Assembly (NCBI RefSeq): GCF_003762835.1
Contig: NZ_RJWA01000001.1
Span: forward strand, 620,001-684,000
Length of the DNA: 64,000 nt
Reading direction: 5' to 3'
Source: Micromonospora sp. HM5-17
GTDB lineage: Bacteria; Actinomycetota; Actinomycetes; Mycobacteriales; Micromonosporaceae
Both the position numbers and the translations under genes were made by a program. The notes beneath the pieces were generated by a model. The model did not search any database, was not told the origin of the DNA, and saw only the letters and a list, made by a program, of their open reading frames with translations. Positions 13,561 through 25,939 of the stretch are shown piece by piece. The number at the start of each line of letters is the position of its first letter. Positions within the stretch are counted from its first letter, which is position 1.

Positions 13561-13976
13561 ATGATGCCGGTGTCGATGGTGGGGCGCGCCGGTGAGTTGG
13601 CCGAGTTTGCCCTCTCGCCGCGGCGCCCGATCTTCCGGCCCCGCTGGTGGTGGCGAGCCGGCCGCCGAAGATGGCGGTGTCCCGGCGGATCGTCGCGGCC
13701 CCCCTCGCCCGGCTGGCCGGGGCGCCCGGCGCCGTCCGGCAGCGCCTGGGCCCGCTGACCCCGGCGGACGTCGCGGAGGTGCTCGGCCAGGTCTACCCCG
13801 ATCCGGCCGAGGTGTCGGACGACCTGGTGGCGGCCGTCTGGCGGCGGACCGGCGGCAACCCGTACCGGTTGATGGAGCTGCTGACGATCGAGGGCGGCGC
13901 CGGACCGACGGCGCTGGCCCGCGCGGACCGGCCGGAGGTACCGGGGTGGGTCGGCCGAGCTGACCGGCCGGGATAG
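13561..13976 (+). pseudogene. Remnant of an AAA/LuxR-type ATPase regulator
   Basis: Two frames carry the ends of an AAA_16/STAND-type ATPase. MVGRAGELAEF at about 13576 resembles the N-terminal VGRexEL of this class. A second frame from about 13650 has SRRIVAAPLARL, LGPLTPADVAEVLGQVY and RRTGGNPYRLMELL, the typical winged-helix and GGNP region. The Walker A and B segments between them are missing and the frames do not join. It reads as an internally deleted, frameshifted remnant; no LuxR helix-turn-helix remains. Confidence 0.6.
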
Positions 13977-14287
13977 CGAGATCCGTTCATCCGGGTCGCC
14001 GGTGTTTCCGCCTCACTTGACGTGTGCGCCATCATTGGTAGATAGGCCCGGAGTGCGAAGGGGATGGTGGCCATGAAACGTGGCGCCACTGTGGATAGGT
14101 CGAGCAGTCCGGCGTTGACCAGCATTTTCTTGTGATTCACGACGGGGTCGCGGGTCGGGAGTGCCGGGACGCGTCGGGATCGACGGATCATCCGGCGCGG
14201 TACGGGGCCGCGGCGAAGCGCGACGCGCCATAACATGAGCGCATTGACGACCTGACCGGTTGATTCGCGGATGGTGGTGCACGACAG
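13977..14287. other. Non-coding stretch
   Basis: 311 bases between the regulator remnant and the SCO2524-like gene. Base composition is slightly less GC-rich than the surroundings. Short frames on both strands (for example 14013-14282 minus) have no recognisable content and unremarkable codon use. TTGACG near 14246 could be a -35, but no matching -10 was found. It must hold the promoter of the SCO2524-2522 operon. Confidence 0.5.
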
Positions 14288-16120
14288 ATGAGGATCCAGC
14301 CCCGTCAGGAGCTCTTGGAAATCTGGGGAGCCACCGTCCGAACGAGCTGGCAGGACGGCAAGTGGCAGTGGGGCGGCCGGGACGGTCCCAATTCGATCAG
14401 CGACGCCGAGCAGTTGCTCTGTATTCTCCTGCCGGCCACGCAGGCGGACTTCAGCCTGGACCGTCCGGACGAAACCGCCGACGAAATGATCAAGGCGTTG
14501 CGGCCGCTCGGCACCGCCACCCAGATTCCCCGGGTGTTGGTCCAGCTCCTGACCGAGTATTACCAGCGGTACACCGACACATCCGGGACGCCGATCTTCT
14601 CCGGACGGACGTATTTCCAGACTGACGGCGCGGAACCGACCGAGCAGCAACTCGACCTCGACATCGTCGACTCGTTCGCGATGTCGATCACCCTGTCCCT
14701 GGCGGCCATCGGTTTCGCCCGGGTCTTTCGGACGGCGGTACGCCGTGACGAGGTCCTGCGTGAGATCGACGAACTTGAGGCGATGGCGAGCGCGCGGCTC
14801 ACCGCCGCGATGGTGGGGCTGCTGCGCAGCTTCGCGGTCAACGTCTTCGACATCGACTCGCCCGAGGGCCAGGCGCTCTGCTCCATGATCAACCAGGGCG
14901 ACCTGCCGCAGCGGCAGGTCGTCGCCCAACTGCGCCGCCGGCTGCGTCAGACGATCGCCAGCTTCCGCGAGATCCTGATCGGTTCCGGCCAGGTGGCCGA
15001 CCTGGACAGTCCCAACCGGCTCTTCGAGTGCGGCTGGTCCTGGGGGATCGTCCGGGACGCCCCGGAGGTCGAGACGACCGAGCCGATCGGGAGCCAGCCG
15101 GCCGGGGTGGCGCCGGAGGAGCCGTACCTCTACTTCACGGTCATCGCGATCGACGCGATCGAGGAGCTGTTCACCGAGCGGACCCGCATCCTCGGCCTGC
15201 TCAACGACGAGCAGCAGCGGCTGGCCCGGGCGCTGCAACTGCGCTGGGACCTGACCCGGACCTACTGGGCGACGGTCGCCACCTTCGGCGACGGTCACCG
15301 GTGGCCGCTGGAGGACATCCCGTGGCGGACCACCGACCGCGAGGCGTCGGACTACTACACGCTGCTGGTGACCTCGCTGGCGGTCAAGGGCCTCGTACAG
15401 GAGCGGGGCGCCGACGCGGAGCTCAGCCGGATCGGCGCGATCCTGGAGGAGCTGGCCAATCGCGCTCGGATCACCCGGCGTCCGTTCGACCAGGATCCGG
15501 CGCTGCACCTGCACGCCCCCGGCGTCGAGCTGAGGTTGCAGCGCAGCGAGCTGCTCGGCGGGCCCACCCTGCGCTGGACGGTGAGCGAGTTCTCGGCACT
15601 GCTCCTCCAGCGCACCGCGTACATCGCCGGCCTGCTCAGCGACGCCGACGCGCGGGCACGGCTGCTGGACCTGGCCGACCGGGTCTGGGACCACCTGATC
15701 ATCCGCCGGCTCGACCGCGGGCCGGCGCGCAGCCTCTGGGACCAGCCGGCGCGGGCGTTCCGCCAGCTCGACACCTACTACGACGCACCCTCGTGGTACT
15801 ACACCGAACGGGTGGTGCAGTCCCTGGTCACCACCGTCAAGGTCCTGCGCCGGCCACCGCTGCGGAGTGAGCGGTTGACCGAGTACGCGCTGGATCTGCT
15901 GAACGAGGCCGAGCACCTCTACGACATGGAACTGCTCAGCGGTACGGCGGAGGGCGGGCCGAAGATCCGGCAGACCCTGCAGGTCGTCCGGCTCAGCCTC
16001 CGGCGGGCCCGGGAGATCGTGCACGAGCGTCCCGGCACCGCCGCGTCCCTCGCCGCCACCGCGCTGCTCTCGCTGGACGAGCTCAACGCCGCCCGCAAGG
16101 ACGTCGCGGAGGCGGGCTGA
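14288..16120 (+). CDS. SCO2524 family protein
   Basis: A 610-aa protein recognised as the SCO2524 family from its N-terminus (MRIQPRQELLEIWGATVRTS, then WGGRDGPNSISDAEQLLCI) and its place before an SCO2523-type P-loop gene. It is mainly alpha-helical, with long Arg/Leu-rich amphipathic helices, for example residues 145-180 and 200-240. It lacks membrane segments, a signal peptide and any known catalytic motif. The function is unknown; the family is confined to actinomycetes that carry this gene set. The stop and the next ATG share bases, so it is translationally coupled to SCO2523. The start has only weak ribosome-site support. Confidence 0.85.
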   Translation: MRIQPRQELLEIWGATVRTSWQDGKWQWGGRDGPNSISDAEQLLCILLPATQADFSLDRPDETADEMIKALRPLGTATQIPRVLVQLLTEYYQRYTDTSGTPIFSGRTYFQTDGAEPTEQQLDLDIVDSFAMSITLSLAAIGFARVFRTAVRRDEVLREIDELEAMASARLTAAMVGLLRSFAVNVFDIDSPEGQALCSMINQGDLPQRQVVAQLRRRLRQTIASFREILIGSGQVADLDSPNRLFECGWSWGIVRDAPEVETTEPIGSQPAGVAPEEPYLYFTVIAIDAIEELFTERTRILGLLNDEQQRLARALQLRWDLTRTYWATVATFGDGHRWPLEDIPWRTTDREASDYYTLLVTSLAVKGLVQERGADAELSRIGAILEELANRARITRRPFDQDPALHLHAPGVELRLQRSELLGGPTLRWTVSEFSALLLQRTAYIAGLLSDADARARLLDLADRVWDHLIIRRLDRGPARSLWDQPARAFRQLDTYYDAPSWYYTERVVQSLVTTVKVLRRPPLRSERLTEYALDLLNEAEHLYDMELLSGTAEGGPKIRQTLQVVRLSLRRAREIVHERPGTAASLAATALLSLDELNAARKDVAEAG

Positions 16121-17037
16121 TGCTGATCTTCGCAACCTCGGACAAGGGCGGCACCGGCCGCTCGGTGACCAGCAGCAACATTCTCTACCGGAGTGCGTTG
16201 CAGGGTAGCGATGTCTGCTACCTCGACTTCGACTTCGGGTCGCCGACCGCGGGCGCCATCTTCAACATCGCGGCCGTCGCCCACGGCACCACCCGGGGCG
16301 GCCTGCACGAATACCTCGACGGCGCGCTGGCCGAGCCGCAGCGGATCGAGGTCTGGGCGGAGTCCGACCGAGCGAGCCTGCGCGAGCGGCCGCCGGGTGC
16401 CGGGCGGCTCGTCCTGCTCCCCGGGGACGCCGGCGGCGGGGAGTTCCCGGCCACGCGCGAGCACGTCGAACGCTGCGCCGACCTCTTCCTCCGGCTGGAG
16501 GAGGAGTTCGACCTGAGCCTCGTCGACCTCAGCGCCGGACGCTCCTGGGCGACCCAGATGGTCCTCGCCGCCACCGCGATGCCGAAGCTGCGTTCGGTCC
16601 GGTGCCGGTGGCTGGTCTTCCACCGCTGGACGCGGCAGCACGTGCTGGCGGCCTCGGGGCTGGTCTACGGCCCGCGGGGCATCCTCGACATCGGCACCCG
16701 GGCCGGGCACGACTACGACGAACTGCTCAACTCGCTGCGGTTCGTCCGTACCGCCGTGGTCGATCCGGACTCGCCCGAGCTGGAGGGGCTCAAGCCCGCA
16801 CAGGTCGCCTGGCTGCGGGAGTGCAACCAGGACCTGCTGGAACTGGCCAGCGTCAGTCGGGTCGGCCGGACGATGCTGATCGGCTCGGTGCCGCTCGACC
16901 CCGTGCTGCAATGGCGTGAGCAGCTCATCTCCGACAATGACGTGCACGCTCGCAAGATCGCCAACCTGGAGACGGTCGAGGCCTTCTCGCTGCTGGCGAA
17001 GCTCATCGTCGACGACTCGGCCTGGGAGATGCTGTGA
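16120..17037 (+). CDS. SCO2523 family variant P-loop protein (MinD/ParA-like)
   Basis: A 305-aa SIMIBI-class ATPase homologue. The deviant Walker A reads TSDKGGTGRSVTS at residues 6-18. The MinD signature Lys9 is kept, but the P-loop Lys of KGGxGKT is Arg14, the feature that names this family. CYLDFDFGSPTAG at about 34-46 corresponds to the switch I Asp region, and LSLVDLSAGRSW to the Walker B/switch II hydrophobic strand. MinD-like proteins dimerise on ATP and move partner proteins on membranes or DNA; here the partner is presumably SCO2524 or SCO2522. It overlaps both neighbours by one base. Confidence 0.88.
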   Translation: MLIFATSDKGGTGRSVTSSNILYRSALQGSDVCYLDFDFGSPTAGAIFNIAAVAHGTTRGGLHEYLDGALAEPQRIEVWAESDRASLRERPPGAGRLVLLPGDAGGGEFPATREHVERCADLFLRLEEEFDLSLVDLSAGRSWATQMVLAATAMPKLRSVRCRWLVFHRWTRQHVLAASGLVYGPRGILDIGTRAGHDYDELLNSLRFVRTAVVDPDSPELEGLKPAQVAWLRECNQDLLELASVSRVGRTMLIGSVPLDPVLQWREQLISDNDVHARKIANLETVEAFSLLAKLIVDDSAWEML

Positions 17038-17996
17038 TGGGACCGGACGTCAGATTCGAGGAGAGCACCGCCCGACGCAGCGTCGAGTCCGTGCCGCTGT
17101 CGCACCTCTCCATCGAGCTCGGGCACCTCTACATCGAGGAGTTCGCCGGCGGCGCCGAGCAGCTTCGCCGGCACTTCGCCCGGGTCGTACCGTGGGTCGC
17201 GGCGGCCCGGCAGGCCTGCCTGGACCGTACGCCGACCGGGAAGCCCCGGATCAGCACCTGCTTCCTCATCGACGACTACTTCACCCGGTTCAGCACCCCC
17301 CGCTTCGTCATGGAACAGGTACGCCAGGCCGCCCAGGACACCGGGTTGGTGATCGATTACTTCGCCCGTGAGGCCGGGTGCGCCCAGGCGGACGACATCC
17401 CCCTCGCCGAGCTGGTCCTCACCCAGCTCGTCTCGGACCCGGTCCCGGAGACCACCGGCGACCGACCGCCCACCTCCGAGACGGGCTGGCTCTGCAACGG
17501 CAAGCGGTCGCCCTCCTCGGGGCCGGGCCAGGCGATGAGCGCCGGCCGACCCTGGCAGCCTCCGGTGCAGAACGCGGCGAACCGGCACTCGATCTTCCTG
17601 GACGTCGAACTCTGGGACTACGAGGAGGACGGACGGAGACGCTGGTCCTGCCCGTTCCTCGCCGCCGTCTGGCAACTGATGCGGATGGGCCTGCTCCGGC
17701 ACGAGGGCGAGGGGGTGACCAACCCGTACCAGCTCGACGACTGGCCGGACGACTGGGACGACATGCCGGCGGTGGTGAAACTGAACCCGCACGCGGCGCC
17801 GTTCAGCGCGTACCGCACCTTCTCGGTACTCGGCTCCCGCTTCCTGTCGGTCGAGCACGCCGTCCGGACGATCCTCAGCCAGGTCTCGATCAGCCCAGCC
17901 GTCCTCGACCAGATCCAGACGCGCAGCCGTAACGAGCACATCGATCTGCCGAAGGACCTCGTCGAGCGGGTCGAGTACGTCTTCATCGGCGACTGA
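17037..17996 (+). CDS. SCO2522 family protein
   Basis: A 319-aa soluble protein recognised as SCO2522 family from VESVPLSHLSIELGHLY near residue 20 and KPRISTCFLIDDYF near 80. The latter has an acidic DD pair that could bind metal, but no enzyme family is assigned. The ATG at 17037 overlaps the SCO2523 stop (TGATG) with GGGAG eight bases upstream; a GTG three bases earlier is equally in frame. It is the third gene of a tightly coupled three-gene operon whose joint function is unknown. It is convergent with the large NACHT gene. Confidence 0.86.
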   Translation: MGPDVRFEESTARRSVESVPLSHLSIELGHLYIEEFAGGAEQLRRHFARVVPWVAAARQACLDRTPTGKPRISTCFLIDDYFTRFSTPRFVMEQVRQAAQDTGLVIDYFAREAGCAQADDIPLAELVLTQLVSDPVPETTGDRPPTSETGWLCNGKRSPSSGPGQAMSAGRPWQPPVQNAANRHSIFLDVELWDYEEDGRRRWSCPFLAAVWQLMRMGLLRHEGEGVTNPYQLDDWPDDWDDMPAVVKLNPHAAPFSAYRTFSVLGSRFLSVEHAVRTILSQVSISPAVLDQIQTRSRNEHIDLPKDLVERVEYVFIGD

Positions 17997-18023
17997 CCGC
18001 ACAGGGGCACGGTTGGGTCGGGA

Positions 18024-18040
18024 CGGCGGTCCGGCCGCCG
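18024..18040. terminator. Weak bidirectional hairpin
   Basis: CGGCGG and CCGCCG around a five-base loop, between the convergent SCO2522-like and NACHT genes. The stem is only six base pairs, so termination here is a guess. Confidence 0.3.
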
Positions 18041-18061
18041 GGGTCGGGGCGTAAGCGGGCA

Positions 18062-21000
18062 TCAGGCGTCCGGCAGGTCGTCGGGGTCGGCATCCGGCAG
18101 CCAGGTGAGGACCTGACCGGCCCGGCGCCGGAAGCCCGGGTCCGGATCGTCGCGGGCGAGGTTGACCAGGAGCGCCCGGATCTGTCCGTCGGTGCCGAAG
18201 TGGGTGGCGAGCGCCAGCAGGCTGGTGGCCCGGACCGACCAGTCGTGGTCGCGGAGCCGTTCGACGAGGAGCGTCCGTACCTCGGGAAACTCGGCCAGCC
18301 GCTCGGCGAGGACGTGCAGCACCTCGCGGCGGACCTGTACCTCCGGATCGTTACCGGCCCGCTCGATCAACAGCTCGCGGACCGTACGGTCGGCGCCGAA
18401 CTGTTCCCCGAGGATCCGACCCGCCACGATCCGCACCGGCGGGTCCTCGCCGACGGCGCGGGTCATCAGCACCTCGCACTGCTCGACGTCGGTGCCGAGC
18501 TGTGCGGCGAGCTGGATCGCCGCCTCCCGGACCAGGTCCGGGTCCGGGTCCAGCCGGATCCGCTCCAGCAGCACCTCGCGGACCTCCGCGTCGATGCCGA
18601 AGCTCTGGATCAGCAGCCGTACCGAGGCGAGCCGGACCCGGGGGTTGCCGTCGCCGCGTACCCGGGTGGTCAGCAGGGCGTACACCTCGGGCCGGGGCCC
18701 GCCGTGCTGGATCACCGCCGTCGCGGCCAGGGCGAAGACCGTGGCGTCCGGGTCGTGGTGCGCCCGGTCGACCAGGACCTCCTGGATCTCGTCGGAGCCC
18801 TGCGGGTGCCGGGTCAGGGCCCGCAACGCGGCCTCCCGGACCCGGGCGTCGCTGTCGGCCCGGGCCCGCTCCAGCACCACGTCCCGGCACTTGAGGTCGC
18901 GCCCGACGATGTCGGCAAGGGCGTTGACCGCGGCGAGCCGTACCGAGGCGTCGCGGTCGTCGCGGGCGAGCCCGGCGAGCACGTCGCAGACCGCGGTGTC
19001 CATCCCGACCCGCTCGACCAGGGCCTGCGCCGCGGTGAGCCGGATCCGGGCGTCGCTGTCGCCGAGCGCCAGCTCCCCGAGCGCGGCGCCGACGGTCGCG
19101 TCGGTGCCGATCTCGTCGGCCAGCGTCCGGGTGGCGAGCAGCCGGACATCACCGTCCTTGTCCTGCCGGGCGGTCGCGACCAGCAGGTCGAGCAGACCCC
19201 GGTCGTGGTCGAAGGACTCGACCAGCAGCTGGAGGGCGGTGCGGCGGACGATCTCGTCGGGGTCGGCGTGGGCGCGACTGACCAGCAGATCGCGCACGAT
19301 GGCGCCGTCCGACCCACGCTCGTCCAACACGGCCCGGGCGGCGGCCCGGAGCACGCCGGGATCGTGGTCGGCCCGGATCCGGTTGACCAGCAGCGTGCGG
19401 ACCTGGTGGTCGGTGGCGAGCCGGTCGCCGAGAATCCGGACGGAGGTGCGCCGGATGACCGGGTCGGTGTCGTCGTGGGCGCGGCTGGTGAGCAGCGTGC
19501 GGACCTGTCGGGTGGCGCCGAAGCGCTCGATCAACACCTGGGCGGCGGCCCGGGTCACCTCGGCGTCGCCGTCGGTGCGCAGGCAGCCGAGCACGACGTC
19601 CCGCAGTTCCTCGTCGCCGCCGTACCGGTCGCCGATGGTCTGCACCGCGGCCCGGCGGACGCTGGCGTGCTCGTCGGCGCGGGCACGCTCCCGGAGAAGG
19701 TCGCGGACCTGGGGCTCGTCGTGGAACCGTTCGCCGAGGGCCTGGACGGCGGCGAGTCGCACCCCGGCGTAGCCGTCGGCGCGGACGCGGTCGATCAGGA
19801 GGTCACGGGCCTCGGGATCGGCGCCGAATCGCTCGCCGAGGGCCTGGACGGCGGCGAGCCGTACCCCGGCGTGTCGGTCGTCGCGGGCTCGGGCGATCAG
19901 TCGGGCCCGGGCCCGGGCCGTGGCGGCCTGGTGCGCCGGGCTCTCCCGGGCCGCCGTGGCGAGCTGGGCGACCTCGGCCAAGCCGGCGACCGAGGCGTAC
20001 GAGGCGGCGCTCTCGCCGAGCCGGCCGAGCATGTCGTCGAAGAGGTCGTCGATGCGCTCGGCCGGAGTGGAGAGGACCGCGGCCAACCGGGCGGCGTGCG
20101 TCGACACCGGGCTCCAGACGACCCGGACGCCACGGCGGCGGTACCAGGAGAGGTAGACCTGGCGACCGGGCCAGTTCGGGCCGACCGCCCGGGCGGCGGG
20201 AAGGATCTCCTCCTCGATGAGCCGGGCCGTCTCCCGGTCGTCGATCGAGACGCCGTGTTCGAGGAGGAGGACGAGGCGGCGAAGCAGGTCCTCGGCGGGT
20301 CGGGCGACGGCGGCGTGCGGGGCCCGGACCTCGGCCAGGCACTGCACCGCGAGGGCGAGGTTCCACGGTGGTGGGTCGAACGCGCCCGGCGGCCAGGTCT
20401 GGTTGACCTCGCGGGTCAGCACCTGGATCAGCGCCGCGGTGTGGTTCTCGTGCAGCGCGCCGGCGAGCAGCCGCAGGACCTCCCGCCAGGAGAGGTCGGC
20501 CCAGTGCCGGCGGAACAGCTCCTTGAGCTCGTCGAAGGAGAGGACCTGGTCGTGTTGGAACTTCGCCAGGATCGCGTCGGCGCAGAAGAACTCCAGAAAG
20601 GTGCGGTGTACGAACCCGTACACCCGCGGGTCGTACCGGCCGAGGATGAAGTTGCGCTCCCGGAACTGGTCGATCATGGCCCGGGCGATGGCGCGGGCCG
20701 CCGGGGGATCGCGACGGTAGCGTTCGACCAGGTACCGCTCGAAGACCTCGCAGAGCTCGGCCCGGTCGATCGAGTTCGCGGCCAGCCCGCGGTCGACCGC
20801 CTGCATCCGGTACGCCAGCCGGCGCAGCAGTTCCTTCTTGTCCTCGATGTCGAGGAAGTCACCGACCTCGGAGCGGTCGTGCAGGTGCCGGTCGACGTCC
20901 CACTGCTGCACCAGCACGGTCGCGGCGTGGTCGTACAGCTTCCATCGCTCCCGGGGCAGCACCTGGTGCTTGCCGACGATCGCCAGGATGGTCAGCAGCA

Positions 21001-22423
21001 GCGGGTTTCCGGCCAGCTCCCGCATCGCGTGCGAGTGCCGCATCGCCGCCAGGAGCCGGGCGCGTTGCGCGACGGCGTCTTCCGGACGGTCCCGGGTCGC
21101 CAGCCGGTACCAGTTCGACAGGAACTCGGCCGTCTGCTCCTCGTCCAGGTCCTGGAGGGTGTAGTGGCTGAATCCGGCGCTGGTCAGGATCCGACGGGAG
21201 TAGCCGATGATCCGGGAGGTGACGATCAGCCGCACCTTCGGGTGGTTGGCGGCGAAGTTGGCGATCTGCCGCGCCACCTCCTCGCGGCGGGGTCGGTCGA
21301 AGATCTCGTCCAGCCCGTCCAGGATCATCACCGCCCGGCCGTCCTCGCCGAGGTGCCGGAGCAGCGCGGCGCGCTCGATGCCGAGCCCGTCGATTCCGGC
21401 CCGGTGGTCCAGGTAGTCGATGAAGCTCTCGCACCGGCCCTCGGCCATCAGGGTGACGTACGACCGCAGCTCGATCAGGAGCGGCAGGTGGCCGGCGAGC
21501 GTGCTCAGTCGCTCGTCGGCCGGGCCACCGGCGAGGCTCAGCGCCACGTAGCGGGCGGCCGTCGACTTGCCCGAGCCGGGGTCGCCGAGCAGCACGATCG
21601 CCCGTTCCTCCGGCTCGCCGAGGACGTCGAGGAGCCGCCGCAGCGGCTTCGCGTCGTACGACTCCGGCGGCTCCGTCAGGTCTGGTTGGTCCGGCGCCGC
21701 CGGCCCGTCGTCGACCCCGGGCCGCCCCGCCGAACGGAGCGGGCGCGGCCACGCCCGGGGCAGCTCGCCCGGTGGCGGATCCTTGCGGACCCACTGCTCG
21801 ACGAAGATCGACGTCAGGCTGATGCGCAGGTAGTCCTCGGTCTGCTGCTCCGGGGTCAACGCGTCCAGGTCCAGCACCCCGTAGTGCTGACGCAGCCGGA
21901 GGAAGTACTGCCGGAGGGTGTCCCGGCTCAACGCCGGCATGCCACCCCCGCTGGTGAAGCCGGCGTCGGTGAGACAGTTGGCCACGGCGGCGGTGACCAT
22001 CGCGGCCAGCTCGGCGGAGGAGCGGAACGTGCTGCACATGTGCCGCTCCGCCAGCTCGGCGCGAAGCGCTTCGATCTTGTCCGCGTCGGCCCCCCGGTCG
22101 ATGAAGGTACGCGGCCAGGGCGCCTCCTCGTCGAGGAGGAAGATCAGACAGGGCTTGCCGTGCGCGAGTGCCTCGCGGTACTCCAACTCCGTGATCGAGC
22201 GGTCGTACCCGACCGGGATGAAGCCGTACCGCCAGGCGAAGATGCCGACGTAGACGTCGCAGTTGGCGACATCGGCCAGACACCTCTCCAGGGGGCGCCG
22301 GTCCTCGGCCACGTACGACTCCATCGCCATGTCCTCGACCCGCAGCCGGCGGAGCGCGAGTTGGACCGCGGCCCGGCACTCCTGGAGATCCCGAAACGTG
22401 GCCGACACATAGACCTTGGTCAC
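18062..22423 (-). CDS. DUF4062-NACHT ATPase with C-terminal HEAT-like repeats
   Basis: A 1453-aa STAND-class signalling ATPase. Residues 1-150 are a DUF4062 domain (VYVSATFRDLQECR, DVYVGIFAWRYG, SITELEYREA), a TIR-like Rossmann fold. The NACHT domain has Walker A GDPGSGKST at 280-288, Walker B VMILDGLDEI at 365-374, a sensor VTSR near 401, and the NACHT-associated FVHRTFLEFFCA near 604-615. From about residue 835 to the end run some 18 regular repeats of 34 residues with the pattern VRxxAxxxLxxxxGxDxxVRxLLxxRxxxD, forming a HEAT-like solenoid. Proteins of this build oligomerise on ligand sensing and include anti-phage systems. The GTG start has AAGGAG six bases upstream. It sits on the opposite strand within the SCO2521-2524 set. 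Confidence 0.92.
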   Translation of the reverse strand: MTKVYVSATFRDLQECRAAVQLALRRLRVEDMAMESYVAEDRRPLERCLADVANCDVYVGIFAWRYGFIPVGYDRSITELEYREALAHGKPCLIFLLDEEAPWPRTFIDRGADADKIEALRAELAERHMCSTFRSSAELAAMVTAAVANCLTDAGFTSGGGMPALSRDTLRQYFLRLRQHYGVLDLDALTPEQQTEDYLRISLTSIFVEQWVRKDPPPGELPRAWPRPLRSAGRPGVDDGPAAPDQPDLTEPPESYDAKPLRRLLDVLGEPEERAIVLLGDPGSGKSTAARYVALSLAGGPADERLSTLAGHLPLLIELRSYVTLMAEGRCESFIDYLDHRAGIDGLGIERAALLRHLGEDGRAVMILDGLDEIFDRPRREEVARQIANFAANHPKVRLIVTSRIIGYSRRILTSAGFSHYTLQDLDEEQTAEFLSNWYRLATRDRPEDAVAQRARLLAAMRHSHAMRELAGNPLLLTILAIVGKHQVLPRERWKLYDHAATVLVQQWDVDRHLHDRSEVGDFLDIEDKKELLRRLAYRMQAVDRGLAANSIDRAELCEVFERYLVERYRRDPPAARAIARAMIDQFRERNFILGRYDPRVYGFVHRTFLEFFCADAILAKFQHDQVLSFDELKELFRRHWADLSWREVLRLLAGALHENHTAALIQVLTREVNQTWPPGAFDPPPWNLALAVQCLAEVRAPHAAVARPAEDLLRRLVLLLEHGVSIDDRETARLIEEEILPAARAVGPNWPGRQVYLSWYRRRGVRVVWSPVSTHAARLAAVLSTPAERIDDLFDDMLGRLGESAASYASVAGLAEVAQLATAARESPAHQAATARARARLIARARDDRHAGVRLAAVQALGERFGADPEARDLLIDRVRADGYAGVRLAAVQALGERFHDEPQVRDLLRERARADEHASVRRAAVQTIGDRYGGDEELRDVVLGCLRTDGDAEVTRAAAQVLIERFGATRQVRTLLTSRAHDDTDPVIRRTSVRILGDRLATDHQVRTLLVNRIRADHDPGVLRAAARAVLDERGSDGAIVRDLLVSRAHADPDEIVRRTALQLLVESFDHDRGLLDLLVATARQDKDGDVRLLATRTLADEIGTDATVGAALGELALGDSDARIRLTAAQALVERVGMDTAVCDVLAGLARDDRDASVRLAAVNALADIVGRDLKCRDVVLERARADSDARVREAALRALTRHPQGSDEIQEVLVDRAHHDPDATVFALAATAVIQHGGPRPEVYALLTTRVRGDGNPRVRLASVRLLIQSFGIDAEVREVLLERIRLDPDPDLVREAAIQLAAQLGTDVEQCEVLMTRAVGEDPPVRIVAGRILGEQFGADRTVRELLIERAGNDPEVQVRREVLHVLAERLAEFPEVRTLLVERLRDHDWSVRATSLLALATHFGTDGQIRALLVNLARDDPDPGFRRRAGQVLTWLPDADPDDLPDA

Positions 22424-22470
22424 GGCGGCTCCTTGGGGGCGAGAGCGGCACGTGAGGCAAACGTAGCAAC

Positions 22471-22486
22471 GGTCGGCAAGCCGACC
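22471..22486. promoter_or_regulatory. 16-bp inverted repeat between divergent genes
   Basis: GGTCGGC and GCCGACC flank a central AA. It lies 48 bases upstream of the NACHT gene and about 100 upstream of SCO2521, so it could be an operator shared by both. Confidence 0.4.
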
Positions 22487-22589
22487 CGGTCGGCGACGGT
22501 TTGCGGGATCGAATCATGATGAAATTGCCATCGACCGATCGGCCTCGTGCGCCCCGGTCACGGTGACCCGCGAGCCTGTGGAGGGTTCC

Positions 22590-23522
22590 ATGCTGACTCT
22601 GGGCGAGGTCCATACCGGACTGCTGCAGAACTCCACCGCCCTGTCGCTGGACCACACCACCCAGCTTCTCGATCTCCTGGTCGGCCAGCGGGTCCGCCGG
22701 TCGGAGCGGCCGATCGCGTACGCGGTCTCGCCCGACCAGCTCACCGGGGTCGACTGCCGCCTCCCCACCGCCTCGGGCCGGGTCACCCGAGGCGTCGGCA
22801 CGGTGGTGTCACACGCCGCGGTGACCGGCGGGCACGTGGTGCAGGGCTCGACGTACACCCGGCTCGACCGGGCCGCGAGCAACCGGCGGTTGATCTGGTC
22901 GCACTACCTGTCCCGGCCGGGCCGGGTGGAGACGATCGGCAAGGTCGACTTCTCGGACGTCGCGCAGGGGTTCCTCTCGCCGGCGCCGCAGCCGCAGACG
23001 CTCAACCTCGGCGCGGTCAGCGCCCGGCTGATGGACGTGGTGCAGAGTTCGCCGCGGCTGGACCGGCGCCCGCCGTTTCGGACCAAGCGGACCCGGCTGC
23101 GCTGGGCGATCCGGCCGGCACCGGACGCCACCGCGGAGCCCCGGGGGACCTTCCGCGTGGAGTCCGACACGCTGCGAACCCTGGAGTTGACGGCGCCACA
23201 CGACGACGTGTCGGCGTTGGTCGAACTCTGTGAGGACCTGGCCCTGCACGACTGGCTGCTGACCACGCTGCTCTCGCTGATGGAGTTCAGCCTCACCGGG
23301 CCCGGGACCCGGGCGCAGAAGATCGACCGGCTTCGGCCGGCGATCGACTGCCTGCTGCACCTGTGGATGCCGGCGGCCCGGCTCGACGAGTCGGTGCTGC
23401 CGGTCTGGCGCGACCTCGAACACCGGCCCGGTTTCACCCGACAGTGGCAGACCTCGGTCACCCGGATCCGCGACCAGGTCACGCTGAGCACGATCGCCCT
23501 GCTGGAGGCGCCGGCGCGCTGA
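22590..23522 (+). CDS. SCO2521 family protein
   Basis: A 310-aa protein recognised as SCO2521 family from MLTLGEVHTGLLQNS and RRSERPIAYAVSPDQL near residues 30-50, plus IWSHYLSRPG near 105. No membrane segment or catalytic motif is visible; the C-terminal half is helical. The ATG at 22590 is preferred because GGAGG precedes it by about seven bases. It belongs to the same conserved actinomycete set as the genes at 14288-17996 but is separated from them by the NACHT gene. Function is unknown. Confidence 0.86.
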   Translation: MLTLGEVHTGLLQNSTALSLDHTTQLLDLLVGQRVRRSERPIAYAVSPDQLTGVDCRLPTASGRVTRGVGTVVSHAAVTGGHVVQGSTYTRLDRAASNRRLIWSHYLSRPGRVETIGKVDFSDVAQGFLSPAPQPQTLNLGAVSARLMDVVQSSPRLDRRPPFRTKRTRLRWAIRPAPDATAEPRGTFRVESDTLRTLELTAPHDDVSALVELCEDLALHDWLLTTLLSLMEFSLTGPGTRAQKIDRLRPAIDCLLHLWMPAARLDESVLPVWRDLEHRPGFTRQWQTSVTRIRDQVTLSTIALLEAPAR

Positions 23523-23585: not shown

Positions 23586-23825
23586 TCACTGCCAGCCGCC
23601 GGGCAGCCGGGGGGAGAGTTCGCGCCAGGTGTCCGAGCCGACCAGCAGGGCCCGGATCGCCTCGTACGCGGCCTCCTCGCTGTCGAACTCGTAGAACCGG
23701 GAGACGCCCTCGGCACCGCCGGTCCGCTGCTCCACGTGCCACCGGTCGGCGTCGGTCCGCAGGTAGACGTCACGTCGTGCCAGGCGCCCCCACTGGCCGT
23801 TCCACCAGTGCTTTCGCTGCTCCAT
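23586..23825 (-). CDS. Small conserved-looking protein under LexA control
   Basis: A 79-aa soluble protein beginning MEQRKHWWNGQWGRL, with a central WHVEQRTGG...SRFYEFDSEEAAYEAIRALL segment that resembles a small beta-beta-alpha unit. No family with known function is recognised. A perfect SOS box abuts a TAAGGT -10 element; seven bases separate that element from the ATG, so the mRNA is probably leaderless and DNA-damage induced. It does not resemble the usual SOS genes (recA, imuA, dnaE2). It is convergent with the SCO2521-like gene and shares no operon. Confidence 0.8.
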   Translation of the reverse strand: MEQRKHWWNGQWGRLARRDVYLRTDADRWHVEQRTGGAEGVSRFYEFDSEEAAYEAIRALLVGSDTWRELSPRLPGGWQ

Positions 23826-24634: not shown

Positions 24635-25939
24635 GTGATCATTCTTCAACGATCCATCGGAGTCCTCTTAGGACTGACGGCTGCCCTTGTCCTGCCTGGC
24701 ATCTCGCCGGCCAGGGCAGACGTGCCTGAGGGAGAGCCGCCCAAAGTAGAGCTCGTCCTCGACGTCAGCGGTTCGATGCGGGCCAACGACATCGGCGGTC
24801 GCAGCCGGATCTCGGTCGCCCAACAGGCATTCGGCGAGGTGGTGGACGCGCTGCCGGACGAAACGCACCTCGGTATTCGGGTACTGGGCGCCACCTACCC
24901 GGGCAACGACAAAAAGAAGGGCTGCCAGGACACCCAGCAGATCGTGCCGGTCGGCCCGGTCGACCGGGTAAAGGCCAAGAATGCCATCGCCGGGCTGCGC
25001 CCGACCGGCTTCACCCCGGTCGGTCTCGCGCTGCGCGCCGCGGCCGAGGATCTGGGCACCGGGGGTACGACCCGACGGATCGTGCTCATCACCGACGGCG
25101 AGGACACCTGCGCCCCGCCCGACCCCTGTGATGTGGCGCGGGAACTGGCGGCGCAGGGCATCCGCCTGGTCATCGACACCCTCGGCCTGGCCCCCGACGA
25201 GAAGGTACGTCGGCAGCTTGTCTGCATCGCCGCCGCCACCGGCGGGACGTACACCGCCGCCCAGAGCGTGGAACAGCTGACCGACCGGCTCAAGCAGTTG
25301 GTGGACCGGGCCAAGGACACCTACACCCGCACCCCGGCCATCGTCGCCGGCTCCGGCGACTGCGCCAAGGCGCCGTTGCTCACCCCCGGCGTCTACACCG
25401 ACCGCGAGCGGTTCTCCGAGCACCGCTGGTACCGGGTGACGGTCCGGCCCGACCAGGAACTGCGGGCCTCGGTCAGCATCGGGCTGGACCGGCCGCTCAA
25501 CCGGGATTACGGGGTGCTGCTCCGCGCCGTCGCTCCCGACGGGCGCGAACTCGTCCGCGGTACGGACGCCGGCAGCGGCCGGACGGACGTCCTCTCCGCC
25601 GGGCTCCGCTGGTCGGCCACCGAGCCGGACGAGGCGCTGCGTGAGGAGGATGACGACGAGGAGGACGCCGACGACGAGGACGCGCCCGATCCCGTTCTGA
25701 CCGTCTGCCTGGTGGTGAGCAACTCCTTCTCCGCGCCGGGATCGGTCTCCGCCCAGGCACCGGGTATGCCGATCGAGCTGACCATCGACGTGGTCGAGCG
25801 CTCGCCCGCGCCGAACAGTCCCGGTCTCGGCCGGGGCTGGCTGCTGCTCGGCGTGCTGACCGTGGCCGGGCTGGTCACCGGACTGCTGGCCGGTTGGCTG
25901 ACCCGCTGGTGGGTGGCCACCTGGAGGGAGAACCGATGA
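24635..25939 (+). CDS. Secreted/anchored von Willebrand factor A domain protein
   Basis: A 434-aa envelope protein. The N-terminal signal peptide (residues 1-28) ends in ARA. The VWA domain begins PKVELVLDVSGSM, with a complete MIDAS DxSxS at residues 43-47 and the later TDGED metal contact. A second extracytoplasmic beta-rich region spans about 230-390 and includes an acidic run (EEDDDEEDADDEDA). A single C-terminal membrane helix (LLGVLTVAGLVTGLLAGWL) and a short basic tail follow. VWA domains bind proteins through a metal ion; the partner is likely the next gene product, with which it overlaps (ATGA). Confidence 0.9.
   Translation: MIILQRSIGVLLGLTAALVLPGISPARADVPEGEPPKVELVLDVSGSMRANDIGGRSRISVAQQAFGEVVDALPDETHLGIRVLGATYPGNDKKKGCQDTQQIVPVGPVDRVKAKNAIAGLRPTGFTPVGLALRAAAEDLGTGGTTRRIVLITDGEDTCAPPDPCDVARELAAQGIRLVIDTLGLAPDEKVRRQLVCIAAATGGTYTAAQSVEQLTDRLKQLVDRAKDTYTRTPAIVAGSGDCAKAPLLTPGVYTDRERFSEHRWYRVTVRPDQELRASVSIGLDRPLNRDYGVLLRAVAPDGRELVRGTDAGSGRTDVLSAGLRWSATEPDEALREEDDDEEDADDEDAPDPVLTVCLVVSNSFSAPGSVSAQAPGMPIELTIDVVERSPAPNSPGLGRGWLLLGVLTVAGLVTGLLAGWLTRWWVATWRENR

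What the first reader, a model, noticed from the sequence alone, without database searches (positions are those of the whole stretch)
14288..23522. SCO2521-SCO2524 gene set split by a DUF4062-NACHT-HEAT gene
Four proteins of an actinomycete-specific set of unknown function are present: SCO2524, SCO2523 (variant P-loop), SCO2522 and SCO2521 types. A 1453-aa STAND ATPase is encoded on the opposite strand between SCO2522 and SCO2521, where S. coelicolor numbering implies adjacency. A MinD-like ATPase beside a NACHT sensor suggests a multi-part sensing or defence system, or a NACHT gene inserted at a tolerated site. No SCO2525-type methyltransferase is seen.
Basis: partly seen in the sequence, partly recalled or inferred. 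Interest (0 to 1): 0.85.

Follow-up and report, generated by a model that had tools for sequence, protein, structure and literature searches.

The report
NLR-like NADase tied to SCO2521-2525 genes
A large bacterial immune-receptor-like protein, with a predicted NAD-destroying head like that of human TEP1, sits inside an old actinomycete gene set of unknown function and has been inherited with that set across about a dozen genera, so it looks like a working part of the set and not a chance insertion.

Summary
All four genes hit their NCBIfam equivalogs far above cutoff. The 1453-aa gene between SCO2522 and SCO2521 is DUF4062-NACHT-HEAT. It is not a one-strain insertion. In a tree of 119 SCO2521-2524 sets, all 27 NACHT-bearing sets fall in one well-supported clade: one gain, two losses. 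The NACHT tree mirrors the set tree (distance correlation 0.97). In 121 genomes of the family, every full-length DUF4062-NACHT gene occurs in a genome that has the set. The gene pairs divergently with SCO2521, directly or through a flavoprotein gene, in both orientations of an inverted block. In Actinoplanes it runs in tandem with SCO2525 and the flavoprotein. In the window genome SCO2525, the flavoprotein and a membrane protein form a second locus about 320 kb away. The putative catalytic Glu of the DUF4062 TIR-like NADase fold and both Walker motifs are invariant. Most likely this is a TEP1-like STAND sensor/NADase coupled to the SCO2521-2525 machinery. Defence is inferred, not shown. SCO2522 is predicted to be class I aminoacyl-tRNA-synthetase-like. 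Two unrelated large NTPases (a different NACHT and a KAP-WD40) joined the set in other lineages.

The parts
14288..16120 (+). SCO2524 family protein, 610 aa, fold unknown
   Evidence: NF040567, 925 bits vs cutoff 300
16120..17037 (+). SCO2523 family MinD/ParA-like protein with variant P-loop KGGTGRS, 305 aa
   Evidence: NF040564, 509 bits vs 200; weak NF047398 KGGVGR match, 35 bits; KGGTGR invariant in alignment
17034..17996 (+). SCO2522 family protein, 320 aa; predicted class I aminoacyl-tRNA-synthetase-like catalytic core
   Evidence: NF040566, 465 bits vs 200; AlphaFold pLDDT 88; best structural matches all class I synthetases, Z up to 13.4
18062..22423 (-). DUF4062-NACHT-HEAT STAND protein, 1453 aa
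   Evidence: Pfam; own-genome NACHT hit G000:C1:641104-641604 over cutoff
22169..22417 (-). DUF4062 (TIR-like) domain, aa 3-85; putative catalytic Glu79 in SITELEY (codon 22187-22189)
   Evidence: PF13271 9.9e-22; aligns to KpSwz 10wc and TEP1 11gz; E79 invariant
21104..21604 (-). NACHT domain, aa 274-440, Walker A GDPGSGKS, Walker B DGLDE
   Evidence: PF05729; motifs conserved in homologues
18074..19876 (-). HEAT repeat array, about aa 850-1450, the least conserved part (putative sensor)
   Evidence: HEAT_2, eight stretches; conservation profile
22424..22589 (.). Divergent intergenic region shared by NACHT and SCO2521; conserved blocks next to both starts
22590..23522 (+).
   Evidence: NF040565, 425 bits vs 150; start by orthologue length and RBS; AlphaFold pLDDT 93, no clear fold match

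Best explanation
The DUF4062-NACHT-HEAT gene is a co-inherited component of the SCO2521-2525 set, not an insertion. The protein is a STAND sensor-executioner: the HEAT array (inferred sensor) keeps the NACHT ATPase off until it meets a trigger; the NACHT domain then oligomerises; and the clustered DUF4062 TIR-like domains hydrolyse NAD+, arresting or killing the cell. The trigger is most likely linked to the state of the SCO2521-2525 machinery (variant MinD-like SCO2523, synthetase-like SCO2522, SCO2524, SCO2521, with SCO2525 methyltransferase, DAO flavoprotein and membrane protein TM6 at a second locus), either because that machinery senses or makes the signal or because it is guarded. Shown: domain content, intact catalytic motifs, single gain, co-inheritance, conserved divergent pairing, the split second locus. 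Inferred: NADase activity, oligomerisation, coupling to the set, antiphage role.
For: One gain and two losses on a 119-set tree, all 27 NACHT sets in one 29-row clade at SH-aLRT 99. On the 66-set tree NACHT needs 1 change, against 6-8 for DAO, SCO2525 and TM6. NACHT and set trees congruent: distance r 0.97, 0 of 2000 permutations as high, 8 of 9 shared splits on a genus-level subset. Full-length DUF4062-NACHT in 22 of 65 genomes with SCO2523 and 0 of 56 without (Fisher 1.6e-7, not corrected for relatedness). Divergent from SCO2521, directly or with DAO between, in both orientations of an inverted block. Tandem NACHT>SCO2525>DAO in Actinoplanes and Paractinoplanes. Active site: Glu79 aligns with the only nearby Glu of KpSwz in the SxTE motif and is invariant; Walker A and B intact. 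DUF4062 is an NADase in KpSwz and TEP1, and human TEP1 has DUF4062 next to NACHT (PMC13174449). Closest NACHT-HEAT relatives stand divergent beside FxSxx-COOH operons that also carry a KGGTGR P-loop domain and TIR-like FxsC.
Against: No biochemical or phage data. The NADase residue assignment depends on a weak alignment (E 7.6e-7 with the profile) and on a numbering offset of the deposited chain. Human NWD1, NWD2 and NPHP3 with the same DUF4062-NACHT order were inactive as NADases in the cited preprint. Most sets lack the NACHT gene, so the set works without it. Two sets lost it and one has an internal deletion. Five copies sit outside the set. Flanks are ordinary genes, not a defence island. 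Trees are quick searches with some long branches.
Confidence: 0.55

Rival explanations
1. Passenger at a tolerated site: an independent STAND defence gene was acquired once next to SCO2521 and kept by vertical descent, with no functional link to the set.
For: Only one gain; the set functions without it in most lineages; five off-set copies exist, four nested among in-set copies in the NACHT tree; one otherwise intact set lacks it (L107).
Against: Retained in 27 of 29 sets of the clade while DAO, SCO2525 and TM6 turn over; inversion kept 2521/NACHT divergent; flanking genes outside the set change while the set plus NACHT stays together; every off-set copy is in a genome with an in-set copy; in Actinoplanes it is in tandem with SCO2525 and DAO; L113 lacks NACHT together with 2522 and 2521.
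Confidence: 0.22
2. Regulatory rather than immune role: the NACHT protein tunes the set (for example by local NAD+ turnover or scaffolding) in growth or development. SCO2525 has been linked to normal growth of S. coelicolor and the operon to the HupS regulon.
For: Housekeeping flanks; long-term retention unlike patchy defence genes; literature on sco2521-2526 (PMC11472566, PMC3017869).
Against: Bacterial DUF4062 and NACHT proteins are best known from antiphage systems (PMC13174449); the HEAT region is the fastest-changing part, as expected of a pathogen sensor.
Confidence: 0.18
3. Metabolic coupling: DUF4062 releases nicotinamide, which the NNMT-like SCO2525 methylates, with DAO acting on an amine product; the set is a small pathway.
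For: SCO2525 hits NNMT_PNMT_TEMT and is in tandem with NACHT and DAO in Actinoplanes.
Against: SCO2525 occurs mostly in sets without NACHT, and four of seven genomes of the window genus have NACHT but no SCO2525 match.
Confidence: 0.05

Closest known systems
Swarozyc (KpSwz) DUF4062 antiphage NADase (PMC13174449; PDB 10wc)
   Same: DUF4062 TIR-like domain with SxTE-type putative catalytic Glu at the N terminus
   Different: KpSwz has a winged-helix AUX domain that binds phage portal; here NACHT plus HEAT, and linkage to SCO2521-2525
Human TEP1 / NWD1 / NPHP3
   Same: DUF4062 directly followed by NACHT
   Different: Other C-terminal parts (WD40 in several) instead of HEAT; eukaryotic; not in a gene set
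SCO2521-SCO2525 set of S. coelicolor
   Same: Four (genome-wide five) of the same equivalog families
   Different: Streptomycetaceae sets seen here have 2522 and 2521 adjacent and no NACHT gene; in the window genome the set is split over two loci
FxSxx-COOH (FxsABC/FxsT) systems with a divergent NACHT-HEAT gene
   Same: Related NACHT-HEAT ATPase (about 500 bits), KGGTGR variant P-loop partner, TIR-like component (FxsC)
   Different: Their NACHT lacks DUF4062; they have FxsA peptide, FxsB radical SAM and NB-ARC-TPR FxsT, none of which is in this set
bNACHT antiphage proteins
   Same: Bacterial NACHT STAND ATPase
   Different: Not compared clade by clade here; DUF4062 N terminus and set linkage are distinctive

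Membership tests
SCO2521/2522/2523/2524 NCBIfam equivalogs | Whole-protein score above curated cutoff | tested here: met
   425, 465, 509, 925 bits vs cutoffs 150, 200, 200, 300
SCO2521-2525 set | SCO2525 methyltransferase present in the genome | tested here: met
   Absent from the locus, present in the genome at C1:961885, 334 bits vs 240, with DAO and TM6
STAND/NACHT NTPases | NACHT domain with Walker A and B | tested here: met
   PF05729 36.6 bits vs 26.7; motifs conserved
DUF4062 TIR-like NADases | DUF4062 domain by profile | tested here: met
   77.4 bits vs 24.7; matches 10wc and 11gz
DUF4062 TIR-like NADases | Catalytic Glu (KpSwz E97, TEP1 E1008) | tested here: met
   E79 aligns with the SxTE Glu of KpSwz and is invariant; equivalence to E97 is inferred from a chain offset, and the TEP1 alignment stops before this site
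DUF4062 TIR-like NADases | NAD+ hydrolysis | not testable with these tools
   Needs enzyme assay
Swarozyc defence system | C-terminal AUX domain sensing phage portal | tested here: not met
   C terminus is NACHT-HEAT
Antiphage defence system | Phage resistance when expressed | not testable with these tools
   No experiment possible
Antiphage defence system | Recognised by PADLOC models or in a defence island | tested here: not met
   Only marginal ATPase hits; flanks are two-component, PP2C, MscL, VWA, PALP genes
FxSxx-COOH system | KGGVGR-AAA (FxsT) above cutoff in the genome | tested here: not met
   Own genome's only match is weak, 4.2e-10, and not among those over cutoff
Class I aminoacyl-tRNA synthetases (SCO2522) | Class I catalytic fold | tested here: met
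   ArgRS 4oby Z 13.4, rmsd 3.7 over 187 aa; the listed rows are all class I synthetases; AlphaFold model pLDDT 88
Class I aminoacyl-tRNA synthetases (SCO2522) | HIGH and KMSKS motifs | tested here: inconclusive
   Invariant E28, G30, H31 in ELGH resembles HIGH with the first His replaced; no KMSKS seen, the protein ends at the last matched strand

The most novel reading that the evidence does not exclude
The SCO2521-2525 set is the core of an unrecognised actinomycete programmed-arrest or immune system: a synthetase-like enzyme, variant MinD-like protein, methyltransferase and flavoprotein make or gauge a signal, and interchangeable large P-loop NTPases (DUF4062-NACHT-HEAT; NA-iREase3-NACHT-pentapeptide-WD40; WD40-KAP) act as lineage-specific sensors or executioners.
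Probability: 0.22. Interest if true: 0.85.

Novelty: new variant of a known kind. Interest (0 to 1): 0.64.

Why it matters
It gives a long-uncharacterised actinomycete gene set a first concrete functional lead, and offers a bacterial protein with the DUF4062-NACHT order of human TEP1 inside a defined genetic context where its trigger can be looked for. If the set feeds the NADase, it would be a bacterial route to the open question of what switches on DUF4062-NACHT proteins.

Tried and rejected
Strain-specific insertion: rejected. Loss of SCO2525 from the window genome: rejected. Large protein in the NACHT slot of Catellatospora L023/L029 as another STAND: it is a DEAH-type helicase with DUF3418. 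Mce genes, Lon and a peptidase next to other sets: unrelated neighbours. PDB sequence searches with SCO2521, SCO2522 and SCO2524 profiles gave no usable match. SCO2521 structure search gave no match at Z 8 or more, so no fold is claimed. Literature searches for the set found only passing mentions; none links it to NACHT. The 780-aa antisense ORF at 13793-16135 has no family match and is taken as a high-GC artefact.
Full report
What is there. The window carries SCO2524, SCO2523 and SCO2522 in one overlapping + strand run (14288-17996), then a convergent 1453-aa gene on the - strand (18062-22423), then SCO2521 on the + strand to 23522. All four proteins exceed their NCBIfam equivalog cutoffs by wide margins. 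The large protein is DUF4062 (aa 3-85), NACHT (274-440) and a HEAT array. The genome has 11 NACHT matches, so a NACHT gene as such is common here. SCO2521 most likely starts at the ATG at 22590.

Is the NACHT gene part of the set? SCO2523 is over cutoff in 65 of 121 genomes of the same family. I took neighbourhoods of up to 20 kb around these. A homologue of the window NACHT lies in the set in 23 of 66 loci, down to about 41% identity, in all seven genomes of the window's genus and in nine further genera. Two arrangements occur: 2524>2523>2522> <NACHT 2521> (window type) and 2524>2523>2522> <2521 NACHT>. In both, NACHT points away from SCO2521, so the pair inverted as a block. A DAO flavoprotein gene can stand between them on the NACHT side.

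Tree evidence. On a tree of concatenated SCO2521-2524 from 66 loci, all NACHT-bearing sets form one clade (SH-aLRT 99) and NACHT needs one change of state, against 8 for DAO, 6 for SCO2525 and 7 for TM6. Adding named loci (the window genus is Plantactinospora by nearest relatives such as P. endophytica) gives 119 sets: 27 NACHT-bearing sets within one 29-row clade, with two losses. One loss is a set that also lacks 2522 and 2521 (L113), the other a clean NACHT loss (L107); L111 has an internal deletion. NACHT and set distances correlate at 0.97, and 8 of 9 splits are shared on a genus-level subset. The method was a quick tree search and some rows have long branches.

Reverse test. A profile of the DUF4062-NACHT region finds full-length or near-full-length matches in 22 of the 121 genomes, all with SCO2523. 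Five copies lie off the set, each in a genome with an in-set copy. Four nest among in-set copies in the tree and one is sister to them all; one is broken. The intact off-set copies are longer, and one has an extra C-terminal nSTAND5 plus TIR_2. In 296 genomes across the phylum no other full-length match was found.

The rest of the set. Around other sets three more families recur: SCO2525 (NNMT-like methyltransferase), a DAO flavoprotein, and a protein with a likely N-terminal membrane segment and a weak DUF6879 match (TM6). In Actinoplanes and Paractinoplanes the order is <2521 NACHT> SCO2525> DAO>. The window genome keeps SCO2525, DAO and TM6 side by side in a second locus near C1:960581-963719, about 320 kb away; two relatives have the same three genes (G036, G058) and a third has SCO2525 and TM6 (G104). 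Four of seven genomes of the genus have no SCO2525 at this threshold yet keep NACHT.

Function of the NACHT protein. A May 2026 preprint reports that DUF4062 is a TIR-like NADase, active in the Swarozyc antiphage system and in human TEP1, and that human TEP1, NWD1, NWD2 and NPHP3 place DUF4062 next to NACHT (PMC13174449). The window domain aligns to both solved structures. Glu79 of SITELEY matches the SxTE Glu of the KpSwz chain and is invariant, as are the Walker motifs; the HEAT region is the most variable. NADase activity is therefore likely but not shown; in the same preprint NWD1, NWD2 and NPHP3 were not active.

Links to other systems. The next-closest NACHT-HEAT proteins lack DUF4062. 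Five of them (L068-L072) stand divergent beside FxSxx-COOH operons with FxsB, FxsC and a KGGTGR P-loop/NB-ARC/TPR protein. Kaur et al. describe inactive MinD/ParA-like domains in such actinobacterial conflict systems (PMC7159879). SCO2523 has the same KGGTGR motif. Two other lineages of the SCO252x set hold unrelated large NTPases: NA-iREase3-NACHT-pentapeptide-WD40 divergent from SCO2524 (L045, L117), and WD40-KAP between DAO and SCO2525 (L047, L048, and by gene size and order L151, L157). Given how common such genes are, this recurrence is suggestive only.

SCO2522. AlphaFold (pLDDT 88) gives a fold whose best re-aligned matches are all class I aminoacyl-tRNA synthetases, Z 13.4 for ArgRS; Foldseek's own E-values were weak (best 0.016). 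A conserved ELGH resembles HIGH; no KMSKS is apparent and the chain ends where that loop would follow. It may activate an amino acid, or may be a degenerate relative.

Conclusion. The mechanism (HEAT sensing, NACHT oligomerisation, NAD+ loss, coupling to the set) is inferred. The flanks are ordinary genes, so I do not file it as a known defence system.

Noticed in passing
L165:8082-11220 (G000:C1 about 960581-963719): Second locus in the window's own genome with DAO, SCO2525 and TM6 side by side; same three genes in G036 and G058, two of them in G104.
   Followed up: yes
window 17034-17996: SCO2522 family is predicted to have a class I aminoacyl-tRNA-synthetase-like fold with an ELGH motif and no visible KMSKS.
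   Followed up: partly
L117:2901-7703 and L045:181-5163: A different STAND protein (NA-iREase3-NACHT-pentapeptide-WD40) stands divergent from SCO2524 in two related sets.
   Followed up: partly
L047:14732-18451, L048, L151, L157; also L169:4817-8158: WD40-KAP NTPase gene inside or beside the set, next to a methyltransferase and SCO2525, in Catellatospora and one further genome of the family (G077).
   Followed up: partly
L080:9658-15774: Off-set paralogue of 2038 aa with DUF4062-NACHT-HEAT plus C-terminal nSTAND5 and TIR_2.
   Followed up: partly
L068-L072: NACHT-HEAT genes divergent from FxSxx-COOH operons (FxsB, AAC(3)-like, FxsC, KGGTGR-NB-ARC-TPR); L068 has a small peptide ending FSSAV.
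   Followed up: partly
window 23586-23825 (-): 79-aa ORF without family match between SCO2521 and MscL, conserved in 14 loci.
   Followed up: no
window 24722-25939 (+): 405-aa VWA-domain protein downstream of MscL.
   Followed up: no
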